This document shows, in pieces, positions 2,581 through 30,776 of a stretch of 64,000 nucleotides of DNA. Positions within the stretch are counted from its first letter, which is position 1. Each line of letters starts with the position of its first letter. The DNA is from Candidatus Altimarinota bacterium (GTDB lineage Bacteria; Patescibacteriota; Gracilibacteria; BD1-5; UBA2023), in assembly GCA_028685185.1 (NCBI GenBank), contig JAQUEK010000004.1:62001-126000 (forward strand). Reading direction: 5' to 3'. A program made the translations under genes and the position numbers. Below the pieces are notes generated by a model. That model had not been told where the DNA came from. It was given only the letters and a program-made list of their open reading frames with translations, and ran no database searches.

Positions 2581-2663
2581 TCTCGATAAGTGAATTAATT
2601 TAACTACAATATAACTGTTTCGTTAAAAAAAACAAATTGTCAATGTGAAGTTTTTGTGAAGAT

Positions 2664-4007: not shown

Positions 4008-4018
4008 TTTATCTGTTG

Positions 4019-5419
4019 TTATTCAAATCTAAAGCCTGATCTTATCCTATCTAGCCAATGCATTCAAGGAAGAGGAAGATCATATTTTTTAAGGAATTCG
4101 TATTCCATTTTAACTATTTTATAATAATTTCAATTATTATCTCTTATTACCTTTTCCAAAATTGATTCATCCAAGTTTTCTAGATTGAGATCTGTAAAAT
4201 TTATGACATCCGAATTTTCTGGAATATCAACATTTATTTTCCCTTCTCTCCACAAGAATCAATCTTTGATGACCTCTTCCTTAGTGAAATCTCATAATAT
4301 GGAAGCCACCGTATCATTGAAATAAAAAGGATTCATGTCTCAAGGAAAGAAATCTCCTAAAATTCAAGCTTCATCCATTTGGAAAAAAATCTTATCTGCC
4401 ATCTCGAACCATTCATCTTTTGAATACTGTTTATTCAATATGCAGTACATTTTATTCTTGAGTCAAATGCATCAAAGGCAAAATGAGCATTCCCAGCAAA
4501 AATTGCAATAATATAGGTATGAGCCTAATGAGGTTATGCAATTATATTGATTGTTTCACATTCATCAGCCAGAAAGTCAGTACAGATCATGGCTATCATC
4601 TCATGTTCATGAATCATAGACATCATAACAATCGCTGAATAGGCCTTTTCATCAGACCATTACAAGATTCCTTCAATTCTTCACTCAATCAACGAAACAT
4701 CAATTCTCAATATTTGTCGAGTTCATTATCCTATTTCCATTTATTCCAATGCTTCAGATGTTTTCTCATCTCTTATTCAGTACATCATACCAATCAGAGA
4801 ATTTATCCTTCTGGTTCAATATGTTTTCCTTTTCTTTCAGAAAATCAGCTTTGCTGAATTCGGCATTGCCAATGAAAAATGACTTATTTTCAAGGTCATT
4901 GCAGAATATGCAGTCATGGCATCAGATCAAGTTATCGCAGAACCATATGTCAGAGGAATCTTCAATATACTTGGAATAGAATATATTAAAGGATTTTGAT
5001 ATTCAAGAGCACATATAGATGTTTTCCGACTGCTTGTTTACTACGACGCTATTAAGAATATTTCTGGAATTATCCTTAACTCCATAGCTATAAAGGACAT
5101 TTTCAGATTCCATCACAACGAAGCTCAGATAGATATTCTTGCTCCAAGCTACAACATCCGAATAATCTGAATTTTCCGAAGAGATATGAAGCAGATTCGG
5201 AAAATACGTCTCATTCAGAAGAAGTTTATAATTTCAGAAGAAATCTTTAGAAAAATCATAACATTGCAGTGAATCAGATGTGCTTTCCATTTCATCGAAA
5301 AATTTCCTATCATCTATGGTTCATCTTATTCTTGAGCTATCAGGATATCTTGATATGATTCAATCTTTTTTGTTCAATACAAGAGGCCATAAGCTCACTA
5401 TTTCCTTAAGAAAAACCAT
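4019..5419 (-). CDS. cysteine-containing CPR-family protein, shortened paralogue of the 6204-7934 gene
   Basis: A 466-residue protein resembling the middle of its neighbour at 6204-7934. Shared features are cysteine/aromatic stretches (YCNFCWECSFCLGC), the conserved ILNKQYSKDEWFEMADKIFF block, the NPFYFNDTVA segment and the final motif HWLDRIR. It lacks the zinc-ribbon segments at both ends of the paralogue. The family is common in CPR genomes and has no established function. The ATG at 5419 has an AAAGGA sequence about 11 bases upstream. The frame stays open upstream to the response-regulator stop, so a TTG start at 5482 is possible. It sits between the response regulator and the kinase genes. 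Confidence 0.75.
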
Positions 5420-5518
5420 GAAGCTAGTCCTTTTCCTTTTTTCCTTTATAATGACCTCCCATTTATCCAATGTCTTTATCAAAGCTTTGAAATTAATTCT
5501 AAAATGAATATCGAAAAC

Positions 5519-6203: not shown

Positions 6204-7934
6204 TTAGTTTTTTTCGATGTAGCAATCTTCACAGTAGACTATCTCTGGTCTTTCAGGAGAAAAGGTTGTCTTGATTTCCTTGTTACATCTGTCACAGTTT
6301 CTGTCATATAGCTTTCTTGGATTCCTTAGCTTCATCCTGTCTAGGTGACGTTGGTCTGGATGTCTTCTTGGTATTGGCAGATCATGCTTCCTGTAGAATT
6401 CAAGCTCTTGCTTTATTATCCTGAAGGGTTTTTGAGTTACTTCACATTCTATTGCCCAGTTGGTTATATCATCTGGTATGTCCTTTATATTTTCTGGAAG
6501 CTTTGATGCTGGTATTATCTTTGTTACATCTGGCTTTGGGTTTTCGTAGGTGGACCATTTGAAGATCGGTTTTCAATCAGTAGCGATGCGATTGATCGCA
6601 TCGCTACTGGATATTGGATAATATTCCATTGCTACTGTCTCGTTGTATCAGAATGGAGAAATTGATGATGGGAAGAATTCTCACCATTCTCATGTTGTTT
6701 TCATGTGTTCTATTATCTTTGGTACGAGAGTCTCATATTCTTCGCGAGTGTATTGCTTGTTGAGGATGCAGTATTGGGAATTTCTTAGTCAGATGCATCA
6801 GAAGAGGTTGGAGGAGTTGTGACAATTATCTGAATACAATACATTATTGCAATTCCAAACCGTTACTGTAAATAGGCATCAATTTGATCATGCGGCGCTT
6901 AATCATTCATATGATAAAGAGCATTTTTCATTCGCTCAAGTGATTGAACAATCCATGACATCAAAAAGATTTCATCATTGATAAATATACTTGCAGTCCT
7001 TTATATAATGTGAATCATAGGCTTCTTGATTATCAGATGAATCTGACAGGAAATCTCAAGTGGAATTCTCACATCTGACTTGATTGGAAAAACATCTGGG
7101 CGTCTTAAATATCATATCATTGAATTTTTTCAGACAATCCGCAAGAAAAATCTTATTTGTTCTGATCTCTTTTTCATATCTTGCAAATGTTTCCTTATCT
7201 GTCCTTTCATTCAAGAAAAAATATTCCTGATTGATCAATCAGATTGAGAACATGCAATTTCTGGATCATTTGCAGTCAAATATATAATTGCTGTCAGTGC
7301 AATCAAAGCAAGCAAAAGAATGATTCACATTATAACATTTGCTCAAATTGATTCATTCATAGCAGTTTTCACATTCTGATAGCCAAAATCCGTCAATGCA
7401 GCTTTTACTCCAAAAAATATTTGAAACATACATGCAATCTTCATTTTCCCATGATGTAAAGCATAGATAGCAATTTTTGCTTCACTCTATATCATTGGTA
7501 TACTGTGAATTCTGAGAATTTTTCTGGATCAGTGCAATCCTAGGGACATTATTTGCAAGCTCAACGAATTGATCGAAAAAATTTTCTGAAAAGGAAAAAT
7601 CTTTTCAGAAATCAAGAGGGTTCCATCTATCTGACCACCATTCTTCCTGAGAATATACTTTGTATCTCTTATCTGGTGAATAGATTGAAATCATATCTTT
7701 TCAAGAGAAATCACATTTTCTCCTATAAAGATTCCTTTCATTCCTAAATGATAATCTCCTCTGTTGTCTGCAATCCGAACAAAGATTCGGTGATGGGATT
7801 AGAAATTTCTTGAGACCGGTCTCAATTAAAAACATCGGTGAGGTCTTGTCATAGAAAGCAATATCCTTGTCAGTGATATTGAAATCTGCACTGCAGTTTC
7901 TGCATTTTTTGGTCTCAATATTTTTTTCTTGCAC
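6204..7934 (-). CDS. zinc-ribbon CPR-family protein
   Basis: A 576-residue protein of a family widespread in CPR bacteria and without known function. Residues about 11-50 hold paired cysteines (CRNCSADF and LCSDCRQQRRLSFRNERNLY), then KCDFSGKDMISIYSPDK. The centre is rich in CxxC-like pairs embedded in aromatic repeats, and the C-terminus has another zinc ribbon (NCDRCNKEIKTTFSPE, then YCEDC). I infer metal binding from the cysteine spacing. The gene is 30 bases after trxB and 13 bases before the response regulator. A perfect 32-base hairpin lies inside the coding sequence at 6578-6609. All reading uses TGA as glycine. Confidence 0.85.
6578..6609. repeat. perfect hairpin inside a coding sequence
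   Basis: Two 15-base arms (cagtagcgatgcgat and its complement) separated by two bases. On the minus strand it encodes SSDAINRIAT within the cysteine-rich protein, in frame. Its GC content is higher than the surroundings. No second copy was noticed in the window. Confidence 0.7.
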
Positions 7935-7964: not shown

Positions 7965-8867
7965 TTAAAGTTTCAGCATATCTTCATGTATGCTGTTGGC
8001 TGCCAATGCTCATTCTGCAGATGATATAAGGGTCTGCTGAAACTTATTTGAATTCGTTGTTATATCTCATGCTGCATAAACTCACTTCACAGACGTTTCC
8101 TGCCTTGGATCCACAATTATATATCAGGATTCATCCAGTTCTATTCAAAGACTATCGAAAACAGATGTTTCAGGCTCATTTCAGATTGCGACAAATATTC
8201 AGTCGACCTTCAATGTTTTTCATGATTTAAGCAACACCTCTTCTACAAACATTCATCACTTGATTTCATCTACCTCATCATTCAATATTATCTCTATATT
8301 CTTATGGTTCATAATCCTATCTATCAATACCTTTTCACCTCAAAAGCTAGAGCTTCTATGGACAATATGCACTTTCATGCAGATTTCAGACAGATATAAT
8401 GCTTCTGTCATTGCAGTGTTTCAACCACCGACAATCACAACTTCCCTTCATCTATAGAACATTCAGTCGCAAGTCGCACAATATGAAACTCACTTTCATA
8501 TGAATTCCTGCTCTCATTTTACCTTCAAATATCTGTATTTGTTTCAGCTGGCGATAAGCAGGAATCTTGATTCGATTTCCTTTCATGATAATGTCTTCAG
8601 TTTGAAAGACTTATCAGATTTTGAGATTTCGATAACCTTATCATTCATGACTTCAGATCCGGATATTTTCGCATGCTCTAAAAACTTATTCATAAGATCA
8701 GAACCTGAAATCTTTTCAAATCCCGGATAATTCTCAACCTGATGCGATTGAGTCAAAGCTCATCATAAAAGCTCTCAGATTATGATATTCTTCAATTTAT
8801 ATCTGCTTGAATATATTCATGCTGGCAAACCTGCACTTCAAGCTCATATTATAGCTAAATCATACAT
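7965..8867 (-). CDS. trxB: thioredoxin reductase
   Basis: A 300-residue FAD/NADPH disulfide reductase that recycles thioredoxin. The FAD-binding start MYDLAIIGAGSAGLPAGIYS, the redox motif CATCDG (cysteines 130 and 133) and the NADPH loop VVIVGGGNTAMTEALYLSE are all present. The C-terminal FAD motif GVYAAGDITT is also clear. Several GxGxxG glycines are TGA. Length is normal. The thioredoxin at 35368-35706 is a likely substrate. It is 12 bases downstream of the PH-domain gene and part of the long operon. Confidence 0.95.
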
Positions 8868-8879
8868 ATTTTAATTTTG

Positions 8880-9422
8880 TTAAATGCTAGTATTTTGACG
8901 TGACATCTTGAATTCACTTATCACATTTGTCATTTTTCTCTGATTTTCAAAAGGGCTAGGCAGGAAATCCATTTCGAATTCTGATTTCTCAGAAGCTGTA
9001 TGGATAGTCACAACACCGTAATCCAAAAGGTTTCGCAGATATCAGTCTGTCCTTGCATTGACTTCTTGAACATCTTCAAGCGAACATTCAGAAATATTCC
9101 TATCCATGAATGATTTCTGTTCTATTCATATGACCCTTTTATTTGTAATTATAAAAAGATCCAATTCATATTTCATCCATCAGATATATATGACAAGCAG
9201 GAAAATCGATATATATACTATCAGGAACAGATTCAAAAGGCTATCATGTATCATACTTAATGCTACAGACTTAAAGCCTAGAAATATTGCAACGGACAAT
9301 AATAGGAAAAGAAAATGTCAGAATGTATAGGTCAGCGTTATCCAATGCCTTTTCAATACAAGCTGGATCTTCTCTCAATTCTTCATGTCATACAGATGAA
9401 AGCTGTGCTGTTCTTTTTCCAT
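8880..9422 (-). CDS. membrane protein with bacterial PH domain (bPH_2/DUF304-like)
   Basis: A 180-residue protein with two membrane helices (about residues 34-52 and 60-82) followed by a C-terminal domain containing YELDLFIITNKRVIGIEQKS, the typical first strands of bPH_2 domains, and later DVQEVNARTDGYLRNLLDYG. Such proteins are anchored in the membrane with the PH-like domain in the cytoplasm; their partners are usually unknown. It starts 9 bases after tsaB ends, and trxB follows 12 bases later. Confidence 0.8.
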
Positions 9423-9431
9423 GATCTCTTA

Positions 9432-9998
9432 TTATGTAATATTGGGTTTTTTTATATATATCGGCTCTATCCTATCATTTTTTCATTCGAATACATAATT
9501 CCTTATGAAATTCGAATATCCTCAATTAGATTTTATATAAATATTTTTATTTTCAAAATCAGTTTTATCTCATATTCAGAAATATTCTCATTCATCCATC
9601 TCATCAATGACTTTTATTACAGGCAGAACTTTCGATGATGTTTTTATTAGATATTCACTCCTATTGGCCTTTATTATTATCGGATACGGAATCTCTGACA
9701 ACTCGAGGAATCTGAAATAATCTATAGCATCAACTGGGATACCGTAAACGAAAATCAGGGTGTTTATCATAAGTGTAATAACCCTTGTTCATGTGAACCC
9801 TCATGGTCAGTTGATAACAGCGATTCAAGTAATCTCACCGAAATTCAATGAATTTGATTTCAAAAATTCATCTGTCTTTTCCAGAAGGTTATTATATTCC
9901 TTTCATTTTATATCGAGCAATGATTCGTTGATTATCTTATTGTCATCAAAAAGAATCAAAGCTCATTTTGTTGAAATGGCATCTATGAATAAAAGCAT
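9432..9998 (-). CDS. tsaB: TsaB-like t6A synthesis protein
   Basis: A 188-residue member of the ASKHA fold that acts as the scaffold partner of TsaD in making threonylcarbamoyladenosine at tRNA position 37. The start MLLFIDAISTKGALILFDDN and the loop VINGPGGFTGTRVITLMINT match TsaB, with four of the loop glycines written TGA. The C-terminal half is more divergent and slightly short. It follows the giant gene by 35 bases and would be cotranscribed with it. The t6A made here is the substrate of the MtaB-like enzyme at 33981-35234. Confidence 0.85.
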
Positions 9999-10033: not shown

Positions 10034-13000
10034 TTACTTTAAAACGAATTCGCTTTCAATCTTATATAAGACTTCTCATATCACATCGTTTCAATCGATT
10101 ATATCGATAACTATATAATCACCAAATTTTGAATATTTTAAATCATAGCCTCTGTTCATAAGATATATGTTTCAATCCAATGATATTCAGATGATAGGAT
10201 TTTTAGATTCATCAGTCACATATCATCAGTTCTTAAGATTTGGCGTAGCGTTTGAATTTTTGGCAAAATCGTAATTATCATCCAGTTTTACATATATTCA
10301 GCTGTTTTTCAGGCTATTGAAATCTGTAGTCCTTTCAAGCACTTTGTTTGTGATAAGATTGAGAGTCTCTGTGAAAATGTCTTTATTGTCAGACTTGTCC
10401 CTTATATTTATACTTACAGGTTTTGATTGATCGGATCCGGAAACATCTATAAGATATCATGCATCCTTAAGATTAACCTTTCATGTTTTCTCATTTATCT
10501 CTGCTATGACTATTCAAGATCAATTCTTTATGACCAGTCAGCTTTCTTCTTTTGATTTATAGCTGAATGCTCAGTTGTCAGATGTGAATGTTCAAGTAGA
10601 TGTCTTTATCCTATCGATTATTCAATCCCTGAACCTATAGAAATCAATCGGTTCACCTTTTATCTGCTCACCTATCATTCAGTTCAGATCAGATCATGAA
10701 TTTGTCTTGATCTGAGGTATCGGTGCGTATATCTCTATATTAAGATCCTTATAGGTAAGATTTGAATTATTATCCTTAACATATAACCTGAATTTTTTGG
10801 TTCAAAGCATATCGAATGATCATATATCCAAAATATACATGTTGGATCATTTCTTCACCCCATAAGGATTATCAGGATTAAGGCTATCCTTATCGTTTTG
10901 AGGATCCTTATCTCAATCAGAATCAACTTTAATGTTTCAATCAACATAAATCTCACTTATTCCGGAAACATCATCTACATATTTCTTCAGATCCAAAGTA
11001 AGCTTTTTATAAACAGGCAATTTAATCTTGCTATCAACATTGATAAGAGGTGATTCATTATCAGATTGTAACTGAGGTGCAAATAATGAAACGTCAGTGA
11101 TATTAGATCTTCATCACCTGCTTTCAGAATATAGCTTTCAGAAATAGAATCAGTTATCATTATTTAAGGAAACATTATAATTCTCTGATTTTTCTCAAAG
11201 ATTATTGTAAAGGTATGAATATCCGTTGTTGATCTTGAGGCTGTTTCAATCAGAATATCAGAACAGAACCTCTGAATTCTTATTTGTTAGATCGATTTTT
11301 GTTCCAGGCAATACAGGAAATCATTTCATGGTAGCAAGATCCACTACCTTATTAATTGTATTTTCATAAGGCAAAAGTATATTTCAGCTTATTATCACAA
11401 TCTGGACATTATCATTGAATTCAACATTGCTATTAGCTTTTACCTGCAATATCTCATAGTTTTCTCAATCCTGCTTCTTATATTTAATGGTCGCTCATCA
11501 TAAATCAGAGTATACAGTATTGCCTTTCTGTATTATTATCGATTCATCTTTTTTCAATATCTTGAAATCTTTCATCAGAACAGATCATTCTCAGTTTGAA
11601 TCCTGAATGAAAACAGGGCTATATCTTGATTTATATAATGATCCGGTCTCGTATACATAACTATCATCATATTTCGGATCAGCGATCATATCAATATAAT
11701 ATAGCCTTGAATAAGGGAAAATAGGCTCATTTTTACTATTATCGTTGTTCGTGTTATCAAACCTGTTTATATAATCATAGAATTCCAGCCTGAATCTGCT
11801 ATTATTTTCTTGATCTCAAGGACTGAAAGAGAATTCTATCGAATCTTGCGAATTAAACGAAGGGATGAAATGGTTCGGAGCGAAAATATTTCTTCAATCC
11901 TGAATAGAAAGATAGCTATCTATATTATCCACAACTTCTACTGATCATAGGTTTTTTGCTGTCCTATCCTTTTTAAGGTTATCCTTGATATATAATCCGT
12001 CACTCATCTTATATAGGATGTCATTATCTCAATCCTTATCATAATCGAGCTCGATTATCTTATCGCTTCAGCTTATTTCAGATGAATAGTTGAATAAGCT
12101 TGATTGGACTCAAGATGAATTCACTATGTAAAGTCATTCATAATTATAAGAATAGATTGATTTGCTGTCTTGAGAATCTGAAGATGATGGGTTTGAAGAT
12201 GTATTTTCAGCTGATGGCTCGAACGCATAAAGCTTTTTATCTATCTTATCGTAAATATCTTTATGTAATGTCTCGTTTTCTGCCATATCCTTCTTGAACT
12301 TCTCTGATGAATCTTTTATTCATCCTACGAATTTTTGTCAATCGCTGACCATTTTCGAATCATCGACGGTCGGCTTATCATTTTTAAGATACTCTACGAT
12401 TCCATTATTGATCTTTTCAAATTTTTCCTTGTAGTAAGAAGTATCTGATTCATACTTATATGATACTTTCAATGAACTACTCTTGAACTTCTGTAATGGG
12501 GAGAAATCATAAATCGTCCTATTGTTCCTTATAATGCTTTCAAGTTCGCTTATAAGTCTGCTATTATTGTTCTTCTCAACATTCAGATAATCCTTTACAG
12601 TATTGAATTTATCATCATTCATACCCTTAAGCTCTTTTATTATCTTATTCTCCTTTTCAAAGCTATAATTAAGCGATGAATTTATCGTTGTATATATCTT
12701 TCTTTCCTTAGGGTTTTCAGAGCTTGCAAGATCTTTTATACTCTCTTTAAGGGTAGATTCGAAAGATTCGATGCTGACAAGATCATTCTTATTATCATCT
12801 ATATATTGAACCAATTTGAAGAAACCTCAAACGGTAGCATATACAAGATTCCTTAATCTTTCTTTTTCTCCATTGTAAGATTGAGGTCATTTTAGCACAG
12901 CTCAGTTCGCATTTATATCAACATTTATGTCCTGTATTTCCAGATCAAGGTTTAAGTTAGGCAATGGTGCCATCTTAGCCAAATCGGATATTGAACTTGA

Positions 13001-16000
13001 ATATCTGTTGAAATCATCTGTTACAGTCTTTGCCAACTGCAATATGAAATCGACTTCAAATTCGAAATTTACCTGAGACGTAACCTTAATTGCATCTACA
13101 AAAGAATACGAGAATTGAGGCATATCAATGAACAGGAAGTCGATAGGCAATGTTCAGTTTCTTTCTGTGATATATGCGATCGAATCTCAAGCTTTCCATT
13201 CAGGAGTGAAGAATTTTCAGAAATTCTGGTAAACACAATAAAGTTTAGATAACAATTTTAATATGCTTAAAACTCAAGATATGGAACCGAGAAGATTTGG
13301 TATCGTAGGTGGTGGTGGAAGATCTGGCAATTTCACTTCAGGCAAGCTTGGAATATCAGGAAGATCTGGCAATTCCGGTAATGAAGGAAGAGTCGGTATG
13401 CTTGGGATTGTAAAATTAGGAAGAAGATTCAATGCAATCTTGATTTTCGGCGGACTAGGTAATGTCAGATCAGGTAATTGCGGAAGAATTATAGGCTTTG
13501 GTGTTATCTTGAAATCTGGCATCATTATAGTTATTCAAGCCCTTATATTATGCATATCCAAAATAATATCTGGCCATTTCGGGAATTGGATAACAGGAAT
13601 CGATGGTATAAGTGCTGAGATCAGCTTTATTATGAAATACATAATATCAAATCTCTCGTTCTTACATGATTCGCAAGATGCCTTGTAATCATAGAACAGA
13701 TCAATTAATAATTGCCATGATTTAAGTATTGCCTTTATAAGGATGATAAGCTTTACCCAAGACATGAATCTCTTTCCATTCTTTTCGATATAACCTCACA
13801 TCACATTCTGAATTATTCAGATGTTGCATATTATCTGTTCAGTGTATTTTTCCTTTATCTTAAGAAGTTTGACAAGCTTATCCGGGAAATTCTTATATTC
13901 TTCAAGAACATTTATATTCTTTTCAAGCGTATCGATAAGTCATTTCGCATCAACCATAACTTTGATATTAAGATCTGCGCTTGCATCTTGCAATTTCACA
14001 AATCTTTCCCATTGCTCAGCCTTATCATTATACTCCTTCTTATATGATTTAAGCTTATTATTTGCATCAAAAACCCATTTATCTAAATCTTCAGGAGATA
14101 TCCAAGGGATATTAAGCTCTAGAACCTGTGTCTGAACATCTACCAAAGGTATGCTTGAAAGGAATTTATATGCGAATTGAAGTCATCCTATATTTTTTGA
14201 AGAAACCATTGCAGATGCTTTCTTGTTCATGCTTTTCACGAAATCCTTCATTCAAGGGTTAGTCTTCTGGGCCTCCTTATTAACTTCACTGTTCTTTGAA
14301 TTGAAATTATTGAATATCTGATTTATCTTTGATGCAAAGCTCATTGATTTGGAGCTGAGCGATGAAAAATCGGGCAATATAATAAATAGTGTAGGAAGGG
14401 TTGTTAGCTTTGTAACAATTTCCTCAATCTGTCTCGTTACCCAATCCATGATGAAATCAGGAAAAGAAGCAACTCTTTTAAAATTCACTTTCATGACATT
14501 TGCCATATCAAGATTCATCAATGCTGCTCAGTCGATTGAAATATCAAGATCTCATCATTCCCCAGTTCCTCATCAAATAGACAAAAGTGGTCAGATATTC
14601 ATATTCAATCATCAATGTTGAACTGATGTATCACTTAATATGCTTTGAGCAAGTCATTTATTTCAACCAACATAACTTATTATATTTTCCCTTGTCTCTT
14701 CAGGAATTTTTTCAGTTTGATTTTTCTGCGGTATACAAGAATTTGCATTTATGAATGAATTTCAAGAATTATAGAAAACATTAGATGAGATACTACTGGC
14801 ATCTCAATCAGATCATCCTCATCAACATCATGCCATTGGAGTGGCTGCGACTATACAGTTTCATCATGGAACAAGCGGTGAAGTTCACTTTGTGCTATTA
14901 AACATATTATTCGGTCATACACACATTGCTATTCAGACTGCTCACGTTATGGTAGGTGTAATGAATAATCTGAACATACTTTTTCATTCTCATTCAATAG
15001 AACCATTAAATCAATCAAAAAATCAACCGGCTCATTCAAAATTAATCGGCCACATTGGTGGAACAGGTACTCCGAAAATTTTTATAGGTCAAAAGGTTGG
15101 AAATGCAAAAACAGGAAGTCAAACTCAAGGGTTCATTAATTTTTTGCTTACAGGCATTCAAAAAATTGTCGGTGAGCTTCAAGGTGCAAGCGGTGCATAA
15201 TTAAGAGGGGAGCTTATACATGCTCATCATCCGAATCAGCATCAAAGTCATTGTATTATTCAATCTATCTGAGAATCTATCTGATCCACATTCAAACTGC
15301 TTAATCATCAGATATCCATTCCTCAGCTATCCTGATCATAAGATATAAGGCTTGATCAAGGTTTTTCCTCTCTATCAGGTATTCAATTTCAATTTGAATC
15401 TTTGTTATATTTAGCTAGATCACTCGCTGATTGGTCAGTTGCAGGCTTTATAGTTGCCATCATGGCATCAAGCTGAGTATTCGTCATATTTTTCATTGCT
15501 GCAGAATCGGGCAGATTTTGCACAACGCTTTTTATTTTATCCACATTCGCTAACTTCGCTTCATTTTCCTTAAAGCTTTCAGGCAATTCTGAATTATCTG
15601 TAAATTTTTTGGTTGTTCTGTTATAAATCCTTAATTGGACGGATTTCCATTGGATTTCTTCCGAATTACATTTTTTTGTCGGATTCAAGCTTATTCACCC
15701 GTAAATATCGGTTTTCTCAAGCATTCAAACCTTTATATCTCAGAAAGAGAAACTAGGTGCGATAAGCTCATAGCTTATCTCGATACTTTGATTCGGCAAT
15801 ATATTTATATCATCAAACAGATAATTGAATTCATCTACATCCAACTTATTCAGAGGTTTTATTATCTCATTGCTTGAAGTCTTATATATGTAATTAAGAT
15901 TATCTGAATCAATTAATCAATTATTGTTCGAATCCAGATATATAAGATTGTTCAGAGAAGAATTTGTATTATTTGTCAATCTTAGATTTACCTTTATCTT

Positions 16001-19000
16001 ATCTCACGACTTAAGATTTCATCAGTTCTCATCGATATAGATCTTTTCAATCTTTACTCATCTGCCTTCAGCGAATTGTGATCTTACAAAGGTCTTTTCC
16101 GCTTCAGCATTCTCATAACGCATATTGTCAACATTTGTCTTATCTTTTCAGCTTGCATTTTTAAGTTGGCTTGTAAGATTCATTATCTCTGAGGCCATGT
16201 CTGCATTTGGGTTTCAATTCTCATCAGTTCATACTGCGCTATTTATGACATTCAGCTTATCGGTTTCTGAATATTGTTTCTTTCATGAACTATATTTATA
16301 TTGATAATAAACAAGCTTGTCGAGCTGATTTGCAAGTATTTCCGGAGGCAAATCGCTTCATGCGGACGTACCTGATGATTTCAGAAGGTCTTGAGATTCC
16401 TTGAATTGATCTGTCTGATCCTTAGGTTTTATCTGTGGCAATCCATCGAAATATACTGCTCATCATCAATTTATAGGATCGCTGTTTATCTTTACGCCTA
16501 GATTATTGTCTACGAATTTCTTAGTGAAAACAGTCTCTCAATTTTTCAAGGTTCAATATAGTATGTTAATTTCTCAGGAATCATCGACAGTTACTATATC
16601 ATCTTTTGAATCCTTATCCATATCAAATATCTCCAGTTGTGTAATAGCTCAATTAATGCTGGTTTCGGCTCAATTGACATCGTAAATCTTAGGTTTTTTC
16701 CTTATGAATTTTCAATTTGTATTATCAAGGATTAACAATGCTCATTTATTATCAACCATTGCTATATCAAAATATGTGTCTCAGCTGAAATCTCATACTC
16801 ATTTTCTCAATTTTCATGCATCCGAAACATATGCTAAATAACCCATATCCTTGAATTGACCTGCATAATTAGATAAAAGTTTTATTTTTCAGCTTTCTGA
16901 AAATATCACTATATCCTCCTGTCAATCTCAATTGAAATCTATTTTCTTATATGATTCGATTGGTTCTCAATTTGATTCGAAAATCCTTTTTCATATAGAT
17001 TTATCGAAATCTTGCCCAGAGGTCTTATTTGGAGTTATCTTCACTACTGGGTCTCATAGATTTATCGTAGAATAAGTCTGGTAGAATTTGGTTGAATCTC
17101 ATACGTTGCTTCCTGCGGCAAATTCAAGAAGCATCTTATTATCTTCCTGCCAACCTATTCAATTCGTATTTTCATAATCTTCAATTCACTTTTTAGGTCA
17201 TATCAAATCGTTATCAGGATTACTATCGGCACCGAAATCATTTTTGAAGAAAGATATTCACTTATCTCAATTGCTTGATATTCATAGATAATTATAATCA
17301 AAAGAATATTTAGGAGATGCGCTTTCAATATACAATCAGTCATCTGTAAAGGTTCAATTGTAAATCTTTATGGTTTCTGTAGCGATCTTTATTCAGATAT
17401 ATCAGACAAAAACATCGTTGCTCAATATCTTTATTCATAATATGTTTCATTTTGAATCACCATCAAGTTCAAAATCAACGCTTGGATCCTTGTTTATCTT
17501 AAGATTTTTTCAGATTTTAACCAATTCAACTCAATTATACATAAGATTAAGCTCATCTCATTTCTTTATGCTTTTGGCTTCATCGAATCACTTAAGGATA
17601 ATTGATGAATTATCTCAAATAGAACAATTTGATATATCAGATCAAGTTCAGGAACATGAATATAATCATGTATTATCTCATAAATGTACTCTGACTTTTG
17701 ATATAAGATCTTTGTAAACAGAATCATAAAAACTTATATAAGTTCAGTCCTTATCGCTTCATATCTCTTTTTCCAGATTAAAATCAAGCTCGTCAGATCT
17801 GTTATTTTCGCTATATTTTCATCCTGGAGTAAACGAGAATGCTGTCTGCCTTGAGTTTGTATTATTCAATAAGCTGGTTACTGCCAAAGATCTCGAATCC
17901 TTATTGAATATGATTTCTCATCAAAGATATCATTCGCTTGTTATATTTCCATAATCAGCTCAAAGAAGAACCGTATATAATGAATTATACTTGATGTTCT
18001 CCAATTTCTCCTTATTGAAGAAATAGTATGTGTCCAGAAGTATTGCATCTTTTGAATATCAGTTTATTGTCAATGATTTTCACGCACTGTCATTCACAAC
18101 CACAGTATTCGATTCAAGTCATGGATTAGAGTTTGCTACTATATATGCGCTTCAAGGTATATCTGTAACGTATAATGTCGTGCTTGCAATTCATTGTTCT
18201 ACATTCTCTTCTTTTGAGAATGAAGATCATTCGAATTCTGCAAATGTCTTGTACTCATCGGGAATTGAAAAGCTTATCTTATAGTTCTTTGCATTATATG
18301 CTACATTTCAATACCTGTCATACATCTTTGCCGTTAAGATCGCTTTTTCTCATTTTTTTGCTTCAATCTTATCTTTAGATATGGATTCTTCTATTTTAAC
18401 CGGAATATCAGGAAGAACTTCAATTACATTTCATTCGAATTCATTGACTCAAGGAAGATTAAGATTTATCTTCAGATCCTTTCATGCTACGAAGTTCGGA
18501 ACGAAATTAACTTCTCATTCATTTTTTCAATCCTTTATCTGAACATAATTAGGTTCAATCGATCCGGAAGTCTTAGGAAAATCGAAGTACAACACAGAAT
18601 TGAACCCGTCGATTTTTTTTCAATCTCTATCTTTTACAATAACATTGATCTTATGTTTTTCCTTTCCTGCAACAATATTATCCTTATTTTCGATATCAAG
18701 GGAAATTTTTGCATAATCAATTACCTTTATAGGTTGTGGCAGATTGTATTCTATATTTGATGTATCATTCTTAACTATGAATTTCATGTTGATATCTCAG
18801 ACTTCAGAAGCCTTTGCTGTAAGATATGTGAATCATTCCAATATCGCCTTCTTTTGATTTTTTGAATTCGAATCGGCAAATATTCATTGAGATGAGGTTA
18901 TAACTCAATCAAGATTATATAAGCTTCATTTCGTATAGTTTCAGAATTCATCCAAAAGCTCTATAAAGACAGAAACATTACCTCCTTTTACTATAATATT

Positions 19001-22000
19001 TGAAGAAGGAGTGACTTTCACTGTTTTCAACAATGAAGGGAGAATTGTGATTTCCTTATATCAGTAAGTTCCATTTCAGTCATTGAATTCGAATTTCAAC
19101 ACTGAAGATTTCTCTAATATACTTTTATCATCGAAAACGTATTTTGCAGTTCAATTGCTGTTGGTGAAATTAATGTTTTTCTTCTCTAAAATCTGAACAT
19201 TGCTTATAGAATCATAGACCTTAAGATTTATGCTTGATGGCATAGGTAAATCGGCATTGAATCTATCTTGTTTCTTAAGCTCAAAGATAATATTTTCTCA
19301 AGCTGTCACATTAGATATTATTTCTTCTCATTTCTTAGCAGAAACATTAAGTTTATCTCATCTGATCTTAATAAGATAAATGTTTGATTCATTGTATATC
19401 TCAACCTCATTGTCTTTATTTAACGTCTCTATTGAAGCTCTAATATAGATATCGATATCTTTTTGCTTTGATCAGAATGCAAATTTTGCAATTCAATTCT
19501 GAACCCTGATTTTTTGAGGTGTTAGATTTACAAATGAATTTATGTTTGATATATTGCTTAATGATTGGTTTGAGGATTCTTTATCATAAATAGTGCTTAG
19601 ATTTTTTGGGATTGCCTTTCAAGAATATGCGTCGACCTTTACCAAATCAAATTTCACTTGAGATAGATTATCTACCTGTATAAGTTTCTCTCATAATATC
19701 TTGCTTGAAATAAGCTTTGCTTCAACGGAAATGCTTGAATCATACAGATATATCTTCTTATCGGTTTTGAGCTCGATTTTTCAATCCTGTATAAGTTCAG
19801 CTCAGTCTGGAATTCAGTTTCAATTTCCATCTAAACCATATTCATCACCACTTACAGAACTAGCTAAAGATGAGCCAGATATAAGCTGACCTCAACTAGG
19901 AGAACATGATCAAGATGACAACGAAATAGGTGGAACTATTGATTTTAACCAACAGAAAACCTGTGGAAGCCATTGAAAAATAGGAACTCATTCGGGCGGT
20001 CAGCATTTGAATCAATCATCCTTATTTTGTGAAGAAGACACTTTTGATCAATCGATAAGTCATCTTAAAGTGCTACTGTTTGTTTTGATACTTTTTATAG
20101 AATCGATTTCCATTCATGATTTTCAGGTTGCTTCAAGCTTTACATACATATTTTTAGAATCTCATCTTCATCAGATATATGCTAATTCATAGTCGTTCTT
20201 ATGTCATGCCTGAAATTTTGTAGAGTTCTGGTCTGTATCAAGATAATTCTCCAACACATATTTATATTTGGCTGTTGCACTGCTTATATTGCTCCAGATT
20301 ATCGAATCTATAAGCAAATCCATAACTTCCTGTTTATTGGAAATCACACTGAACAGATCCACATTTGAAGGATATGTAGAACTTATTTTCAATGAATCGT
20401 ATATATCCTTATTCGTAGAACTCAATGCAGAAGGATTTTCAGAGCTTATGATTGTGTTTATCTCATCGCTTTTCTTATCCAGATATTCCTTTAGTTTCAT
20501 CTTAACCCTAGGGTAAGTCAATTCCTCGGATTTTTCTATCTTTATCCTAAAAAAATTAGGATAAATGATTTTCTTATAATTTCATTTAGCGCTTATAAAA
20601 TCCACATATCTGTCTCTATCAGATGCCAAAGATTGCATCGGTATATTCTTATATGCACCTCATAATTCTTCCAATGTAGGAGATTTATGTGTAACTATTG
20701 ATGGTATGCTCTTAAAGTAATACTTTGAATTTACGAAAACCTGTGAACATCAATTACAATCAACCTCAGTGGTTACTCAAGTTTCAGAATCCGTAACAGA
20801 ACACTTTTTGCTATATCTGTTTTTTTCAACATCATCAAGATATACTTTATTCTCACTTAAAGTTATATTATTGAAGTGATATAAGCTTACGTTGCTTGGT
20901 TGAGCGAAAATTTCATCATATGAACGTCAGAAATTATAGAATGCCTTGTCATCAATACAAGAGTAATCTATTGTTCAATTGTTATTGCTGGTCTGTATGA
21001 AATTATAATTTGAACAATCATTAGGAGAATATGTTGAGATCACTTTTCATGATATATCCTTGACATCATCCTGTTTATCTGTAGTTTCATTATATCATAT
21101 CTGCTTACCTCATGCCACTTCAAATAAAGGCGAGATCGCTTTCCTATAATCATTTGTCTTCAGAGTGAATTTGCTTCATGAAGAAAGATCTAGATTTAGA
21201 GGCGAATTTGATCACCATTGCTGAAGACTAAGTGTCTTTGATGTATTATTATAACATTTTGACATTGAATTAGGAGAAACACTCAGATTATCTATATCCT
21301 TTTGTATAGTGTCTATATTATACGATCTGTTCTGCTCAACCATGACTCATTTATTTGAATCTGTTCTTTTTGTTCATCTATATATGCTGCATTCCTTAGC
21401 TTCATTTATGTTTCATCAGTTTTTTCAAAAATAAAAATTAGTGGTTATTCTGCTATCAGTTATTTCATTACAATTTTCAGCTCAGTTATCTCAATAATGT
21501 TTAACTTCCTCAACCCTGACCGGCAATGCTATTTTCCTGGATAATCAATCCTTTGAAACAAGCTTATCTATATTATCTTCCAATGTTGTGTTCAGATCTT
21601 TCAATGCCTGTTGTGATATCTGATCCCTTTTTGTGATAATTGCAGAAGGCGAATCTATCCTTGCATTTTTACTATCTCAGTATCTTCATGTATTATAAGC
21701 AAAATTAAGCATATCTGATATATGCTTTCAATTGAATATCTCGACGAATCTCTTTGTTGCCTTGGCTATTATGCTTTTTGCTTGCATATCCGGAATGCTT
21801 GAAAAATCCATTCATCCGCCATTTTTTGAATCGTCTAAAATTGCCTTCACTCATGGATTTATGTTTCATCATTCGTTTGCTACTTTTGATATCTCATCAT
21901 TACCGAAAGAATTGAATTTGTCATAGATATCTTTTGCCAGATATTTATTGATTCTTTCATAAGTTATATCTTCGATATTCTGAAGATATAACACATATGC

Positions 22001-22708
22001 TTTCCATAATGATGTCTGAACGCTTTGTTCATCCCTAAATCAATCAAAATAAAAAATATAAGGATCCTGCAATGTTTTTGAAAAAACTCCTTGCTTAAGA
22101 TAATAATCATGGGATTTATCGAAAAAATCATTAAGCTTTTTTGAGTTATCAGATGCGATTCACGTGTTCGGAGAAATTACAGAATGCCATATTTCAGGAT
22201 TAGGATCTGTTATGTTTTTGCTTATTGATTCGTAGAATCATTTCTGTGTATTATAGATGAAATTCTTTTCATTGAAATCTATATACGGATATATACTTAG
22301 GAATGTCTTTCAATTATTATGAATTACAGGCAGAGGTATATTTCAGACCAATATGGTTCAAATAAGCCTTGAAAACTTATCTCAAGTTCACTCATAGAAT
22401 AATCTTTCATTCAGCTGTGCTATCTTAATCGGATTGATATCACTTGGTACCTTATAGATGATCACCTTTGTATTATCAAGCTTTCATTGTATGTCTTCCG
22501 CATATCTCTTCAGTTTGTTTGAGAAAAGTCATAGTTCATTGTAAGACTGTTCATCTACGATTATGGAAACTATATTGGTATTTGAAATAGCTTCTGCTTT
22601 TGTCGAATCGAAAAATGAAAAATGAATCGTATTTGAAAATAATAATGAAAAAATCAAAAAATATGACAAATACCTTTGAATTTTCGAATATCCTTTATTT
22701 ATAGCCAT
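10034..22708 (-). CDS. giant secreted protein, 4,224 residues
   Basis: One uninterrupted reading frame of 4,225 codons: I read most of the frame for TAA and TAG and found none. The N-terminus is a signal peptide or anchor (RYLSYFLIFSLLFSNTIHF). Residues about 50-200 contain LIGTILVGNIPLPV and SIYPYIDF, resembling the start of other giant CPR exoproteins. Residues about 2490-2730 are glycine-rich with many TGA codons and scattered cysteines. Residues about 3060-3145 form a proline-rich stretch with repeats such as LPELPDLPDIPSLPEVKLP. Much of the rest looks like tandem beta-rich modules with DxDxD-type segments (VDSDGDKDPQNDKDS) that could bind calcium. Function unknown; an adhesin or envelope protein is an inference. 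tsaB follows 35 bases later. Confidence 0.88.
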
Positions 22709-23037: not shown

Positions 23038-24897
23038 TTATTTCTTTGTTTCAGGTGTTTTCTCTTTCGGAGATTCCTCTTTGATGCTTTCAAGCTTTTT
23101 CATGGTCTTGTCTCAGAATGATCAATCTGCTTTTGCTCCTATTGATTTCTGCAATGCCTTAACATTTGCAATAGTTGGGTTTGTCAGAGCATCAGTGATA
23201 AGTTTGTTGATGTTTTTTTCATCAATTGTATAATTCATCACATTTCATTCTGTTTTTACCTTAAACAGATTGTCCACCCTTTTTATCGTACTCTCATTCT
23301 TAAGGAATTTCTCTGATTGCTGTTCTTTTTTTCATTTTGCCTTAAATTCAGCATTAATAGCTAAAGCTTTGCTGTTTTCAGCTTTAACCTTCGGAGCTGT
23401 CTCAGGGGATTGTCCAGCTTTTGATTCAGCCTTAGGTAACAGTGATTTCTGGTATGCCAATGCTGTTTTCATATCAAAATTTCAATTAACCTTATGCTCT
23501 TTTGGCAAATGTCAGTTTTTTATAAGATCCTTCTGCAGTTCAATAACTGCATTTTTTGTCTTTTCTCAGTAAGTAAGCAGATCAGGTTTTCATGTTTCAT
23601 TACTTTTTTCTGTTTTTTCATCTTTGATATCCAACAGATATTGAACATCTTTTATATATTTCTGTCCAGAAGCATCTTTCGGATCCTTGATTGATCCATT
23701 TACATCAAACATCTTAGATAGGTCATATCCGGAATTCTTCTGATCAAGCATCGAATCGACCATTTTCTTCTTTCAATTCTCATCTATCTTTTGGGTATCA
23801 GCTACTTTTTCATTGGTTTTATCCAATCAGAACAAGGCCGCGAACAATTCAAGTATTTTCCTGAAAGGATTATTAGGAGAAAGTTTTGCAATCAATTTAT
23901 TTATGTTTGCTCAATCGATATTAAGAGATTTCGCTTTTTCCTTTGTAACCTCTTTTATTTTTACAGTATTTATCTTTGAAATATTATCTGCACCTATCTT
24001 TTCAGACATCTTTCATTCAATCATTAAAGGTGTGATTTTTCAATCTATTATGATAAAACTATTATTTATATCAATTTTTTTACCTCCTATCTCTTTTAAA
24101 AGCGATATAGCATCCTTATTTCAGCTTTCATTTATATATTTGATATCTTCAGCATTTTCAATTGTGAATCAAGTCTTTAGCATTCCTTCAAATGCAGCTT
24201 TTTTCATTTCAGGAAGAGTCTTGCTTACAAATTCAGTCAATGTTTTTTTCTCATCAATCTTCATGTCTGATAAATTGATTGATTCGATGATTGTTTTTAT
24301 TGATTGTTCGCTTAATAACGGAGATATCTTAAGTAAATCTGCCTTATCTAATATCTTGATATTCTTTATTTCACTTAATGCTTCTTTTGAATTTTCTCAT
24401 TTTAAAAGATTATTTATAGCCACTGAAGTTTTGTTTGTATTTGTAATCTGTGTTTCCAAATTCACATGTGCAGAAACAGTTTCTTTTTGATTAGACTGGA
24501 TTCATCAATCTCCATTTTTTACCGTATTCGATTTTTTAAATTCTTTGTTTCAATTTAAATCTTTATCAGTATTTCAGCTTGCTTTATTATTTACTAATGC
24601 AAGTTTTGCATCGATAAATTTTTTTCACGCTTCGCTTGAATTTAATTTTAAGTAAGCAGATATAAGTGCTTTTTGAGAAGGAGTCAGTTCTTTTGAAAAA
24701 TCTACGCTGTTTAGATATTGTTCCATTGGTCATGTCATGGTCTTCTGAAGTTCCCCAAGTGTTTTTGGATCATCAAGCTTCTCGGATAATACCCTTATTT
24801 CACTATCGGACAATTTGCTGATATCAGGCAATTGGGATGCTTTAGTATCGATAGATTGAACCCCTAAATCATTAGTTCTTAAATCTTTTTCTGCCAT
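23038..24897 (-). CDS. 619-residue protein with peptidoglycan-binding-like repeats
   Basis: Starts MAEKDLRTNDLGVQSIDTK with no signal peptide. The first 350 residues are helical and hydrophilic. Two C-terminal stretches resemble the PG_binding_1 fold: one around LTYGEKTKNAVIELQKDLIK with NGHLPKEHKVNGNFDMKTAL, the other NVKALQKSIGAKADGSFGDK near the end. The tail is Lys/Glu/Pro-rich. If the assignment is right the protein binds murein, yet no export signal is visible. It is the third gene of an operon with the LysM protein and a 105-residue protein. Confidence 0.72.
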
Positions 24898-25311: not shown

Positions 25312-28300
25312 TTAGAGCTTGCTTTCTTGATGATTTTGATTTGTGTTATTCTTGTTCAGATAATTGAAGATTGAATTCTGAAATCTTCATTCGGATAATT
25401 CTTCCTTTTCCGGAATCAATGATGGATTCACATTTTTAGCTTTCAGATAAAACTTAAGCTCAGGATCTCTGATGAAATCGAATAAGGTTGAGTTGAAATT
25501 TTTTGAAGAGGTCAGATCGATGCTTAATTTTTTTATTTTTTCAAATATCTTCTTATCTTCTGGAGTTTTAACTTGTTTCTCATAATCCCTGCAATATTTC
25601 TTTAGGTGCTTCAAAAAGGTATTTCTTCAGTATTTGATTCTTCATAAGGCTTTTCATTTAAAGGAATCATCATAAACCGATTCAGATTCTACATTCAAAC
25701 CCATCGCTCAGTCAAAAATCCTCAATATGCAATTTTCTGCAAAAGCATATAAAGCTGAGTTCTCTCATAAGTGATTTATAAGAAGGATACTGCTCTCATA
25801 GTCCCTCATCTTATCCTTATCTGAATATATGTCATCAATATTCTCTCATGCATTGTAAAGGATTCAGTTGAATTTCTGAAAATGCACATTTATCTTATCA
25901 CTTAAAAGAGATGCTCACAGCATTTTTCCAATGAAATTCGATCAGTCTCAGCTATCTATCCTTATAAGTTCCTTAAGGTATTTCTTTATATCTTTGAAAT
26001 CATCTTTATCAAGATTATCTTTATTTATTATTGATTTAAGTTTTTCAGCCGTATCGATATCACCTTTGGCAGCGCTTTTCTGTTTTGCCGTAAGCGAATT
26101 CAGATAATCCTTGAATTCCTGACCTTCAGTCTTGCTGAAAAAATTCAGAAGATTTTCCTTTGTTATCCATTCGTTCCATCATTTATCTATGGTATCGACC
26201 CTAATCTGAAAATCTCACATTGATTTTATGAGATCGATTCAAAATGTCCTGTTCAGATTTTCAAGGCTTCTTTTAACCTGTTTTCTAGAAATCATCCCAT
26301 TGCTTTTTCATCTGTCATAAACTTCCATGTATTCTATGGTTTTTATAAGGTTCCTGTTCTGATTCGTCCCTACTGCAATATCAATAAGCTTATCATCATA
26401 TTTATTTTGAGGTATGTCAGATGTGTAATAAATGCTATTTATCTCTCATAATATATCATTCATATCAGAAAATGGCATAATGAAGGTTTTTCACGGTTTT
26501 ATGTTTTTCAAGAAGCTCTTGCTGTTGAATTTTATATCTTTCTTTATTGATCGATCTAAAAATTTCACTAAGAACATCCTCTGCTGAAACTCATTCAATT
26601 CGGAAATTAATCTCAAATTGTCAAATTTATCGAACTTTGAGCTATAATGAACCACATAATCCCTTATTCTATTGAAGATATGCACGGAAGTATCTCATGG
26701 AAAGGTTTTAATATCTATGAATTCCTTCAGTTCCGACATGTTTTCATTCGAAAGCTTGAAATTTGTTTTCTTCTGGTTTATGAATTCCTTGAAATTACCT
26801 GAAATTCAAGCTGTTTCATAATAAGGTAAAGCTCTGTTTATATTAAATGCTCATGGATTCAAGACATTCTCATCCTGTAAAAATCAACCGAGCTTCAAAC
26901 CTTTTATCTGAAGGTCATAATATCTGTTTATCTTTTGGACGAATTTTGGGTCCTGAGGATCAAGTTGTTCGTAAATCTTAATCTGTTCTCTCAATACTTT
27001 CTCGACTGTCTCTCATCTTCTTACATCGTATGTTCATTTTATCTTGAGATTGTCTTGATTCTTTTGAAATTTATCTTTTCTGAATGAAGAATTTTTTCAT
27101 GGCTCAAGGATTTCCGTTGGCAGATATAATCATGGCACCACAAATTCGAAAAACATACGTGTCCTTGCATTCATCTTTTTTCTTCTATCTTCATCAAGGC
27201 TTGTTATCTGATGCTCTCAATCTATCATTATAGGTCAGGAGAGCTCGATCTTGCTTGTTGGTCTTATTTGCATCGATCAGGTTTTTCAATTTCTGAATCT
27301 CTTCATTTCTGAAACCAGATCCACTTTGATTCAGTCCACTTTTATATTCACCAGATCCGGATATTTTTCAAGTCAATCATATATCCTCTTCCTTAATTCT
27401 TGAGAATATGCACTTCCTATATCAGCTCTTGTCTGTATGAAATTCGCGATGAAATCTATGACAGTGATTGACTTTTCCATTTTCAGCTTATCTTTGTTTT
27501 CAGATATCCTCGATTTCAATGAAATCATCTTTTCTGCATTTGAATTGTAATTTTTCAATGCTTCTGAGATTATCCTGTTATCAGATAATATTTTTCATAT
27601 TGATAATGCACTTATCTCATCATCTTTGGTTCATATGAATCATTTTATCTGATTTATGGAATTTTCAGCTTTCCTTATGCTGAACAGAAGGTTTCTCCTG
27701 TACTCCATATCCTCCTCATCCAAAATATGATTGGAGATGAGAGATTGGTCATTGTTTATCAGTGCATTAAGAAATCCTTTCTTTGCTCCTTCATTAGGTA
27801 AATTTATATTTTTGAAGATAATTGTGTAGTTTCTTTCGATCTTTGCTTTCAGCTCTTGATTCTGTTCATTATTCAAGGCATTTATAAGTATAATTCTTGA
27901 TTTTTCTATTTCTGATCTTTCTTTTCTGAATTCGATATCCAAAACCCTTAACTCAGAATCCGCTTTTCTACCTTCAACGATCCTATCAACCTCTGATTTT
28001 GCCAAAGCTCAAAGCCCTTGATTTTTTTCCTGGATCAGATTATTGATTCCGTTATTCTTCTTGATTGATATATTGTATTGATTTATTGAAGTTTTTGTCA
28101 TCGCATTTGTCTCGATCAGTTTTCAATAATCGCTTATATTAAGCTCTTTTGAGCTTTTAATATCGTTAGATAATTGCCTCAATCAATCCAAAGCCCTGAA
28201 TCTTGAATTTTCAAGGGATAGTAGATATCCAGCATCCTCCTCACTTATCCTGTATTTCAATATTGCAGAAACTCATTCAAGTATATTATCCTTATTCTTT

Positions 28301-29505
28301 GTCTCTATCACTTTCTTCATTTTTTCAGCCCTATCTGAACTTCATTCTGAAAGCCTTTTAATTGCTATGTCTATAAGATATATCTTTTTTCTTAGAGATT
28401 CGTTCTTGTTTAGATCCATACTTTCCAAAAGCCTTTGTTTCCTTGCTGATAGATCCTTGTCTGATTTTCATCTTTCAAATTCGAGCAGTTTCAAATCCTT
28501 TTGTAATTCTTTCTTATCATCAGCAAATGATTCGACCTTTCAATCCTTAATGTTTCATATCTGGGAGGCTTCGAAATTCCAGCTTATATTTCAGGCAAAC
28601 ATAGACTGATGTGTATTGTAATGCTTATCTTTTCTATCCTTATTATATTCAGCAGTTTTTCATTTATAGTTGGAATAGATGAAATAGTATGGAACCAGGC
28701 TTCATTTCACTCAAGATCTCTCCAGATATTTTCAAAGATCCAAAATTCCTGATTCATACTCTTTTCTGTCGGTTTCCTTCAATGGATTAATCTCTCAGAT
28801 TTTTTTTCCGTCAAAATGCTCCATCAGGTTAATCGGCTGAGAGAATCCTATGCTTTTAAGTTCCGCTGGAAGCATCCATGCATCGATATTCTGTTTTTGC
28901 AGAAATCTCTTCTCTTCCGGTCTGATATCTCACACGTTAACGCTTTGCGACATAAGAGTCCTTATGAGATTCGCGCATGTCACATTCACTTCTCTTGATG
29001 AATCCACAATACGCGGAAGCCTTGGGTCCATCTGTGATTTTTGCGCATTCATGAATCAATCAAGGATATTAGGTAATCATATCGATTGAACCCTTTTAGA
29101 GAATAGGGATCAATCCAATTCTTTTTTTATTATTTTTGAATCGCGATTCGTGATTTTCCTATTAAGATTGAGAATTTTTGATATCTCTTTGATTTTTTCC
29201 AAATTCCTATTGAATTCTTGGATATCCCTGGGGATAAATATCTTTTCTCATGGTTTTATCACTATGATGCTTTGATTTTTTCATTTTGTCTTGAGATTCT
29301 TTCATAGGAGCATATTCAGATCTATAAGGTCAGATTCAGAAAAACCACCATTTTTTGCTATGCTGCTAATGGTATCTCCATCTTTTATCTCATATTTGAC
29401 CGTATTAGAAACGATTATGTTTCTTATTCTTGTCAATTCCGGATTTTCTTCGATATTTCAAGCTTTAAGCTCTTCAAGAGGTTTTATCTGATCTAAATCT
29501 GCCAT
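25312..29505 (-). CDS. LysM-domain protein, 1,397 residues
   Basis: A single open frame with no TAA or TAG throughout. The start is MADLDQIKPLEELKAGNIEE with no signal peptide. Residues about 34-95 form a LysM-like domain: VKYEIKDGDTISSIAKNGGF, then LIDLNMLLGKNL and a late KPGEKIFIPR. A following segment contains VNVTCANLIRTLMSQ, whose cysteine could be catalytic in a papain-like fold, but no His partner was identified. The remaining 1,000 residues are Lys/Glu/Ile-rich helices, probably coiled coils. It is the first gene of the operon with the 105- and 619-residue proteins. Function unknown; a murein-associated structural or lytic role is inferred. Confidence 0.75.
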
Positions 29506-30727: not shown

Positions 30728-30776
30728 AAAAGTAAAGTTAATGAATATTTGTTTTTGTTTAATTATTTTGGTAAAT

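What the first reader, a model, noticed from the sequence alone, without database searches (positions are those of the whole stretch)
10034..22708. Single 12.7 kb gene for a 4,224-residue exported protein
In code 25 this is one frame with no TAA or TAG in the codons I read. It takes up about a fifth of the window in a lineage with small genomes, so it must matter. It has an N-terminal signal, beta-rich modules, Asp-rich turns that could bind calcium, a glycine-rich block and a proline-rich block. Nothing else in the window has its architecture.
Basis: partly seen in the sequence, partly recalled or inferred. Interest (0 to 1): 0.72.

Follow-up and report, generated by a model that had tools for sequence, protein, structure and literature searches.

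The report
Class-wide giant surface protein gene
The 12.7 kb frame is one real gene for a 4,224-residue exported protein, and intact counterparts of 3,700-5,500 residues run through nearly a whole class of tiny host-dependent bacteria (the Gracilibacteria-Peregrinibacteria group), which suggests an ancient, important part of their cell surface whose most conserved core matches no known protein.

Summary
Confirmed, with a correction: the gene lies on the minus strand (window 22708 to 10034, 4,224 aa, table 25, 247 TGA-glycines). It is intact and single-copy. It is not an odd local adhesin. All three thirds of the protein find a partner in 57-58 of 59 related genomes (45 of 45 good ones), and 38 of the 40 loci I fetched carry it as one uninterrupted frame in the same module order. 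The family reaches standard-code Peregrinibacteria and Peribacteria as one frame of 3,700-5,500 aa. It was not found in other classes of the phylum. It evolves vertically under purifying selection (dN/dS about 0.1-0.2).

Modules: signal peptide, unknown alpha/beta N-domain, Ig/invasin-like stalk, FG-GAP blades, then a glycine/proline-rich, cysteine-bearing core that is the most conserved part and matches no Pfam family or PDB or viral fold. Most standard-code relatives add a C-terminal SLH wall anchor. In several families the gene sits next to type IV pilus genes and is followed by small exported partner genes.

Best reading: scaffold of a class-specific, wall-anchored, pilus-linked host-contact apparatus. 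Export is well supported; the pilus link and host contact are inferred. I found no published description of this family.

The parts
10034..22708 (-). giant gene, 4,224 aa plus stop (table 25)
   Evidence: orthologues
22589..22708 (-). signal peptide, residues 1-40 (basic start, hydrophobic core, AEA cleavage site); the same pattern with AxA sites in many orthologues
   Evidence: by eye, no signal-peptide program run
21209..22591 (-). N domain, residues 40-500: alpha/beta Rossmann-like start then helical part; its first part is found alone in a 630-aa protein of family f16
   Evidence: alignment; AlphaFold pLDDT 80; no PDB match
19919..21211 (-). N2 region, residues 500-930, conserved, no known family
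18089..19831 (-). Ig-like stalk, residues 960-1540 (Invasin_D3/Big_1/GH2_C5-type hits in orthologues; Big_1 only E=0.35 here)
17009..18091 (-). conserved region X, residues 1540-1900
16439..17011 (-). FG-GAP blades, residues 1900-2090 (FG-GAP_3, E=1e-7)
15359..16141 (-). DUF11-like region, residues 2190-2450, with a calcium-type DSNGNGIPD turn at 2437
   Evidence: DUF11 only in orthologues; its place there not mapped
14549..15241 (-). glycine-rich core part G, residues 2490-2720 (CGFGGG.C..P.NWAPLAPG motif, conserved cysteines)
12689..14551 (-). helical core part H, residues 2720-3340, most conserved region of the gene; long helices and long strands predicted, no known fold
13307..13486 (-). 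proline-rich tract inside H, residues 3075-3134, with the P-x-hydrophobic repeat PSIPTLPSLPELPDLPDIPSLP
11009..12211 (-). C-terminal region CT1, residues 3500-3900, with an FG-GAP-like blade DYDKDGDND near its start
10037..11011 (-). C-terminal region CT2, residues 3900-4224; in most standard-code relatives followed by SLH and TSP3 repeats, here the end of the protein
9432..9998 (-). tsaB-like gene, 35 bp downstream; with the bPH gene (8880-9422) and trxB-like gene (7965-8867) a neighbourhood kept in several relatives of the family

Best explanation
The gene makes one giant Sec-exported surface protein, the scaffold subunit of a cell-surface apparatus specific to this class. Shown: one intact, single-copy, vertically inherited, constrained gene with a signal peptide, Ig/invasin-like stalk, FG-GAP calcium-type blades and a conserved core of unknown fold; in most standard-code relatives a C-terminal SLH wall anchor; in several of those relatives type IV pilus genes directly upstream and small exported genes directly downstream, one of which (DN3) was not found in any sampled genome of the three families that lack the full giant. 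Inferred: the giant is exported, stabilised by disulphides and calcium, anchored to the wall (by SLH in most standard-code lineages, by an unknown means here), and with the partner proteins forms the extracellular part of a pilus-linked complex that holds or contacts host cells.
For: Orthologues in 57-58 of 59 relatives and all 45 good ones; intact collinear frames; class-wide, 111 of 145 by N domain and 105 of 145 by core; not in sampled genomes of other classes of the phylum. dN/dS 0.09-0.20 in closest pairs, low in all ten modules. Tree follows families, 5 changes = minimum. Single copy. Pfam in 11 orthologues: FG-GAP_3 in 9, SLH in 8, GH2_C5 6, Invasin_D3 4. SLH/TSP3 tails. Upstream N_methyl prepilin, T2SSF and T2SSE genes. 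Downstream exported genes; DN3 in 60 of 79 genomes outside f7, f10, f16 and 0 of 20 inside them. Giant proteins are prominent in the membrane proteome of the predator Vampirococcus (PMC8080830), and type IV pili are cited as essential for host adhesion of a saccharibacterium (PMC11452946).
Against: In the window itself the neighbours are not pilus genes and the protein has no SLH tail, so anchor and pilus link are carried over from relatives. Only about six of fourteen standard-code loci show a prepilin upstream, with no background rate. DN3 was not found in the window's own genome at E<=0.001. No expression, localisation or binding data for this protein. Even conservation is not typical of a host-range adhesin.
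Confidence: 0.5

Rival explanations
1. It is a general cell-envelope scaffold (an S-layer-like or wall-spanning structural protein) that shapes or protects the cell and has no direct role in host contact.
For: SLH anchors in standard-code members; constant single copy, vertical descent and even constraint look structural; housekeeping neighbours tsaB, serS, der.
Against: Prepilin/T2SSF/T2SSE genes upstream in several families; modules are those of adhesins (Invasin_D3, FG-GAP); missing as a whole in f7 and f10, so cells of this class can do without it.
Confidence: 0.27
2. It is a classical fast-evolving host-range adhesin, one of many giant adhesins in the genome.
For: Ig/invasin-like and FG-GAP modules; large insertions between modules in some members.
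Against: No internal repeats; low dN/dS in every module; one copy per genome, same module order through the class; tree follows taxonomy.
Confidence: 0.1
3. It is or carries an enzyme, for example a caspase/gingipain-like protease in the N domain, used on host surfaces.
For: By eye the N domain has the beta-alpha-beta order and a conserved WHG motif reminiscent of peptidase C25, and the stand-alone f16 protein ends in a LLGDPC.L motif.
Against: The Peptidase_C25 model finds nothing in nine genomes at E<=10, although that search had no positive control; no convincing Pfam or PDB match; no near-invariant Cys in the first 300 residues.
Confidence: 0.07
4. The frame is real but the protein is a polyprotein cut after export into separate working pieces.
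For: Family f16 encodes the N domain and the FG-GAP part as separate neighbouring genes, so the modules can act as separate chains.
Against: One frame is kept in nearly all other members; no cleavage motif was searched for or seen.
Confidence: 0.06

Closest known systems
Giant membrane proteins of Vampirococcus lugosii and other Absconditicoccaceae (PMC8080830, PMC13059738)
   Same: same broad group and code 25; exported giants up to 4,163 aa with DUF11, integrin and fibronectin domains, proposed to act in host attachment
   Different: those papers list genome-by-genome giants; in the passages read neither the class-wide orthologous family, nor its unknown core, nor the pilus/SLH link is described. 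Whether the 4,163-aa Vampirococcus protein is the orthologue was not tested
VCBS-repeat protein of groundwater Gracilibacteria, seen in the metaproteome (PMC11452946)
   Same: Gracilibacteria, VCBS/FG-GAP-type protein, filed under adhesion
   Different: no sequence compared; its length is not given in the text read
PilY1/PilC type IV pilus tip adhesins
   Same: large exported proteins, propeller-like calcium-type repeats, linked to type IV pilus genes (family features from general knowledge)
   Different: no Neisseria_PilC or VWA domain match; several times longer; different core
Giant repeat adhesins of other bacteria (RTX/BapA type)
   Same: length, Ig-like modules, calcium-type turns
   Different: Sec signal peptide instead of a C-terminal type I secretion signal, no repeats, single-copy and vertically inherited
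SLH-anchored S-layer proteins
   Same: SLH domains at the C-terminus of most standard-code members
   Different: no SLH seen in any of the code-25 order members, including this one; unlike modules

Membership tests
Family defined here (class-wide giant) | collinear N-N2-Ig-X-FG-D11-G-H-CT1-CT2 modules in one frame | tested here: met
Family defined here (class-wide giant) | one copy per genome | tested here: met
   for the own genome; for relatives
PilY1/PilC pilus tip adhesin | Neisseria_PilC C-terminal propeller domain (Pfam) | tested here: not met
   Pfam scans
PilY1/PilC pilus tip adhesin | gene among minor pilin/type IV pilus genes | tested here: inconclusive
   true in several standard-code relatives, not in the window
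RTX/BapA-type giant adhesin | type I secretion (no Sec signal) and RTX repeats | tested here: not met
   Sec-type signal peptide by sequence; no RTX match
RTX/BapA-type giant adhesin | tandem near-identical Ig repeats | tested here: not met
SLH-anchored surface protein | SLH domains | tested here: not met
   absent in the window protein, present in 8 of 11 scanned orthologues
Peptidase C25 (gingipain) | match to the C25 domain or fold | tested here: not met
   (without positive control)
Vampirococcus 4,163-aa giant protein | sequence orthology | not testable with these tools

The most novel reading that the evidence does not exclude
The gene encodes the central scaffold of an undescribed, class-specific secretion- or pilus-linked attachment machine of Gracilibacteria and Peregrinibacteria, built from a 3,700-5,500-residue protein with a new core fold, type IV pilus parts and three or four small exported partners; family f16 keeps a split version and families f7 and f10 have lost it or never had it.
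Probability: 0.3. Interest if true: 0.85.

Novelty: new variant of a known kind. Interest (0 to 1): 0.62.

Why it matters
How ultrasmall host-dependent bacteria hold on to their hosts is open for nearly all lineages. Here is one gene, recognisable and alignable in about three quarters of sampled genomes of a class that includes predatory members, about 1% of the window's genome, under even purifying selection, with a core that no database searched here knows. It gives a concrete target (localise it, silence it, solve the core) for a question so far approached mainly by lists of giant proteins. It also shows that giant genes need not be recent or repeat-driven.

Tried and rejected
Several genes or frameshifted artefact: rejected. 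Repeat-built adhesin: no internal repeats. Gingipain-like protease: suggested by eye from the N domain, not supported by Pfam, PDB or Foldseek. Transmembrane helix in the core: hydropathy peaks exceed 1.6 in only 8 of 40 orthologues. Known fold for the core: no PDB or viral match at E<=0.001. Plasmid or phage origin: core has no match in 72,556 plasmids or 50,697 phages. The genome-contig scan with the broad alignment failed for lack of a conserved stretch and was repeated with a narrower one. An apparent shared neighbour cluster in 15-19 loci proved to join prepilins with a convergent 700-900-aa exported gene through a short pilin-like stretch. Split propeller idea (blades at 1900-2090 and 3550-3585 belonging together): only suggestive, from the f16 FG-GAP protein.

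Full report
OBSERVATION. The stated interval holds one open frame of 4,224 codons in table 25, on the minus strand (22708 down to 10034). Read on the plus strand it is broken by many stops. Chance for such a frame at this composition is about 10^-101. Reading TGA as glycine is supported within this gene: at the 237 testable TGA columns 52% of orthologue residues are Gly (Gly is the commonest residue in 66% of the columns), against 7% at Asp/Asn/Arg/Ser columns. TGA makes 247 of 309 glycines, like neighbouring genes.

ONE CONSERVED GENE. Three pieces (residues 1-1000, 2401-3300, 3301-4224) were searched in 59 genomes of the same family and order: 58, 58 and 57 have a match, 45 of 45 among good-quality genomes; the only genome without any match is 84% complete. 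I fetched 40 loci. In 38 the gene is one uninterrupted frame (one of these contigs ends inside the gene), full-length members being about 4,000-5,500 aa, with the modules in the same order; two have a single apparent frameshift that may be assembly error. In the wider class the core is found in 105 of 145 genomes and the N domain in 111 of 145. Standard-code members (named Peregrinibacteria and Peribacteria MAGs appear) are single frames of about 3,700-5,500 aa with no stop. Losses are concentrated: no listed genome of families f7 or f10 has it. A sample of 287 genomes across the phylum gave hits only in this class, and plasmid and phage collections gave none. The own genome has one copy. The core tree follows the families with the minimum number of changes (quick method, long branches noted). 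In the closest pairs dN/dS is 0.09-0.20 and is low in each of ten modules. This is the pattern of an old core gene, not of a host-range adhesin or an accessory island.

ANATOMY. A signal peptide (by sequence, no program run) with an AxA site is conserved in pattern. Residues 40-500 form a conserved alpha/beta then helical domain (AlphaFold mean pLDDT 80) without a PDB match at E<=0.001. FG-GAP_3 is the only Pfam family above cut-off in this protein, but orthologues add Invasin_D3, Big_1, DUF11 and GH2_C5 (Ig-like) hits, and FG-GAP_3 in 9 of 11. Ten DxNG/DxDG calcium-type turns are seen against 2.1 expected. The most conserved part is residues 2490-3340: a CGFGGGxC...PxNWAPLAPG motif, invariant cysteines, a predicted set of long helices (36, 28 and 72 residues) followed by a 26-residue strand, then a tract of P-x-hydrophobic repeats (mean pLDDT only 69, about 70-94 over the helices and the long strand). 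Neither PDB nor viral models match. There are no internal repeats.

WHAT RELATIVES ADD. Most standard-code members continue past the window protein's end with SLH domains, TSP3 calcium repeats and a short cysteine-bearing end. None of the code-25 order members showed an SLH-like tail in a motif scan. In families f23, f20 and f24 a prepilin gene and a T2SSF gene lie upstream, directly so in f23 and f24, in f23 also T2SSE; f6 has two prepilins, and f18 and f14 have a prepilin-like gene within 2.5 kb. Directly downstream, on the same strand, follow small exported genes, here called DN1 (about 200 aa), DN2 (about 230), DN3 (about 600) and DN4 (about 340); those scanned have no Pfam match. DN3 relatives occur in 60 of 79 sampled genomes outside f7, f10 and f16 and in 0 of 20 inside those families; in the code-25 order they are weak and lie elsewhere, and none was found in the window's own genome. 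Family f16 has a stand-alone 630-aa N-domain protein (E 1e-20) followed at once by a 564-aa FG-GAP protein and a 1,693-aa exported protein, with no core: the modules can exist as separate genes, so the giant may have arisen by fusion, or f16 by fission.

NEIGHBOURHOOD IN THE WINDOW. Downstream are tsaB-, bPH- and trxB-like genes, an order kept in several relatives of family f1; in f2 the neighbours are others (serS upstream, for example). The gene sits among housekeeping genes. No pilus gene was recognised in the window; the genome has at least ten prepilin-type matches on other contigs.

MECHANISM. Shown: export signal, intact single gene, constraint, vertical descent, adhesin-type modules, SLH anchor and pilus neighbours in relatives, co-occurring partner genes. 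Inferred: surface location in this organism, calcium and disulphide stabilisation, pilus linkage, host contact. I rate the combined model at 0.5; the bare statement 'exported surface protein' would be about 0.9.

LITERATURE. Giant exported proteins are reported for Vampirococcus (ten longest 1,392-4,163 aa, PMC8080830) and Strigamonas (PMC13059738); huge proteins are enriched in Peregrinibacteria (PMC11573180); a VCBS protein and type IV pili are seen in a Gracilibacteria metaproteome (PMC11452946). I found no paper describing this orthologous family; the library holds open-licence papers only and no preprints.

LIMITS. Nearly all sequences are MAGs. The alignments behind the structure models hold 53-57 sequences. 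The pilus link is a gene-neighbour argument from about six of fourteen standard-code families, with no formal background rate. The C25 search had no positive control.

Noticed in passing
window 23038-24897 and 25312-29505, minus strand: Upstream neighbours: a 619-aa protein with a peptidoglycan-binding domain and a 1,397-aa protein with a LysM-like start; no related gene found in the flanks of the orthologous loci.
   Followed up: partly
window 4019-5482 and 6204-7934, minus strand: Two related cysteine-rich proteins (487 and 576 aa), one ending in a treble-clef zinc finger match; they look like paralogues, since one relative's ORF matches both.
   Followed up: no
window 29657-30790, minus strand: 377-aa exported protein with repeated short units (GTISGTDIATDTITAGNIAAGAVGTSEISDGT), reminiscent of a fibre shaft.
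   Followed up: no
window 39768-42578 and 42758-46954, minus strand: Two further large frames (936 and 1,398 aa) with no Pfam match at all.
   Followed up: no
L154/L157 (G071) and L155 (G089): Family f16 carries the N domain and the FG-GAP part as separate consecutive exported genes, a split counterpart of the giant gene.
   Followed up: partly
L063, L065, L066, L068, L069, L070, L074, L159, L162, L163: Conserved downstream set of small exported genes (DN1-DN4) without Pfam match in those scanned, following the giant gene in standard-code lineages.
   Followed up: partly
L027, L033, L039, L044, L046, L049, L050, L052: A convergent 700-900-aa exported gene next to the giant in family f2; at least three copies contain a stretch resembling the non-helical part of type II pseudopilins.
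   Followed up: partly
L025:17219-19900: A prepilin-type signal at the start of an 894-codon frame about 130 bp downstream of the giant gene: an unusually large pilin-like protein.
   Followed up: no
G060 contig 6 (L079): A member of the family reported with an open frame of 7,874 aa, the longest seen.
   Followed up: no
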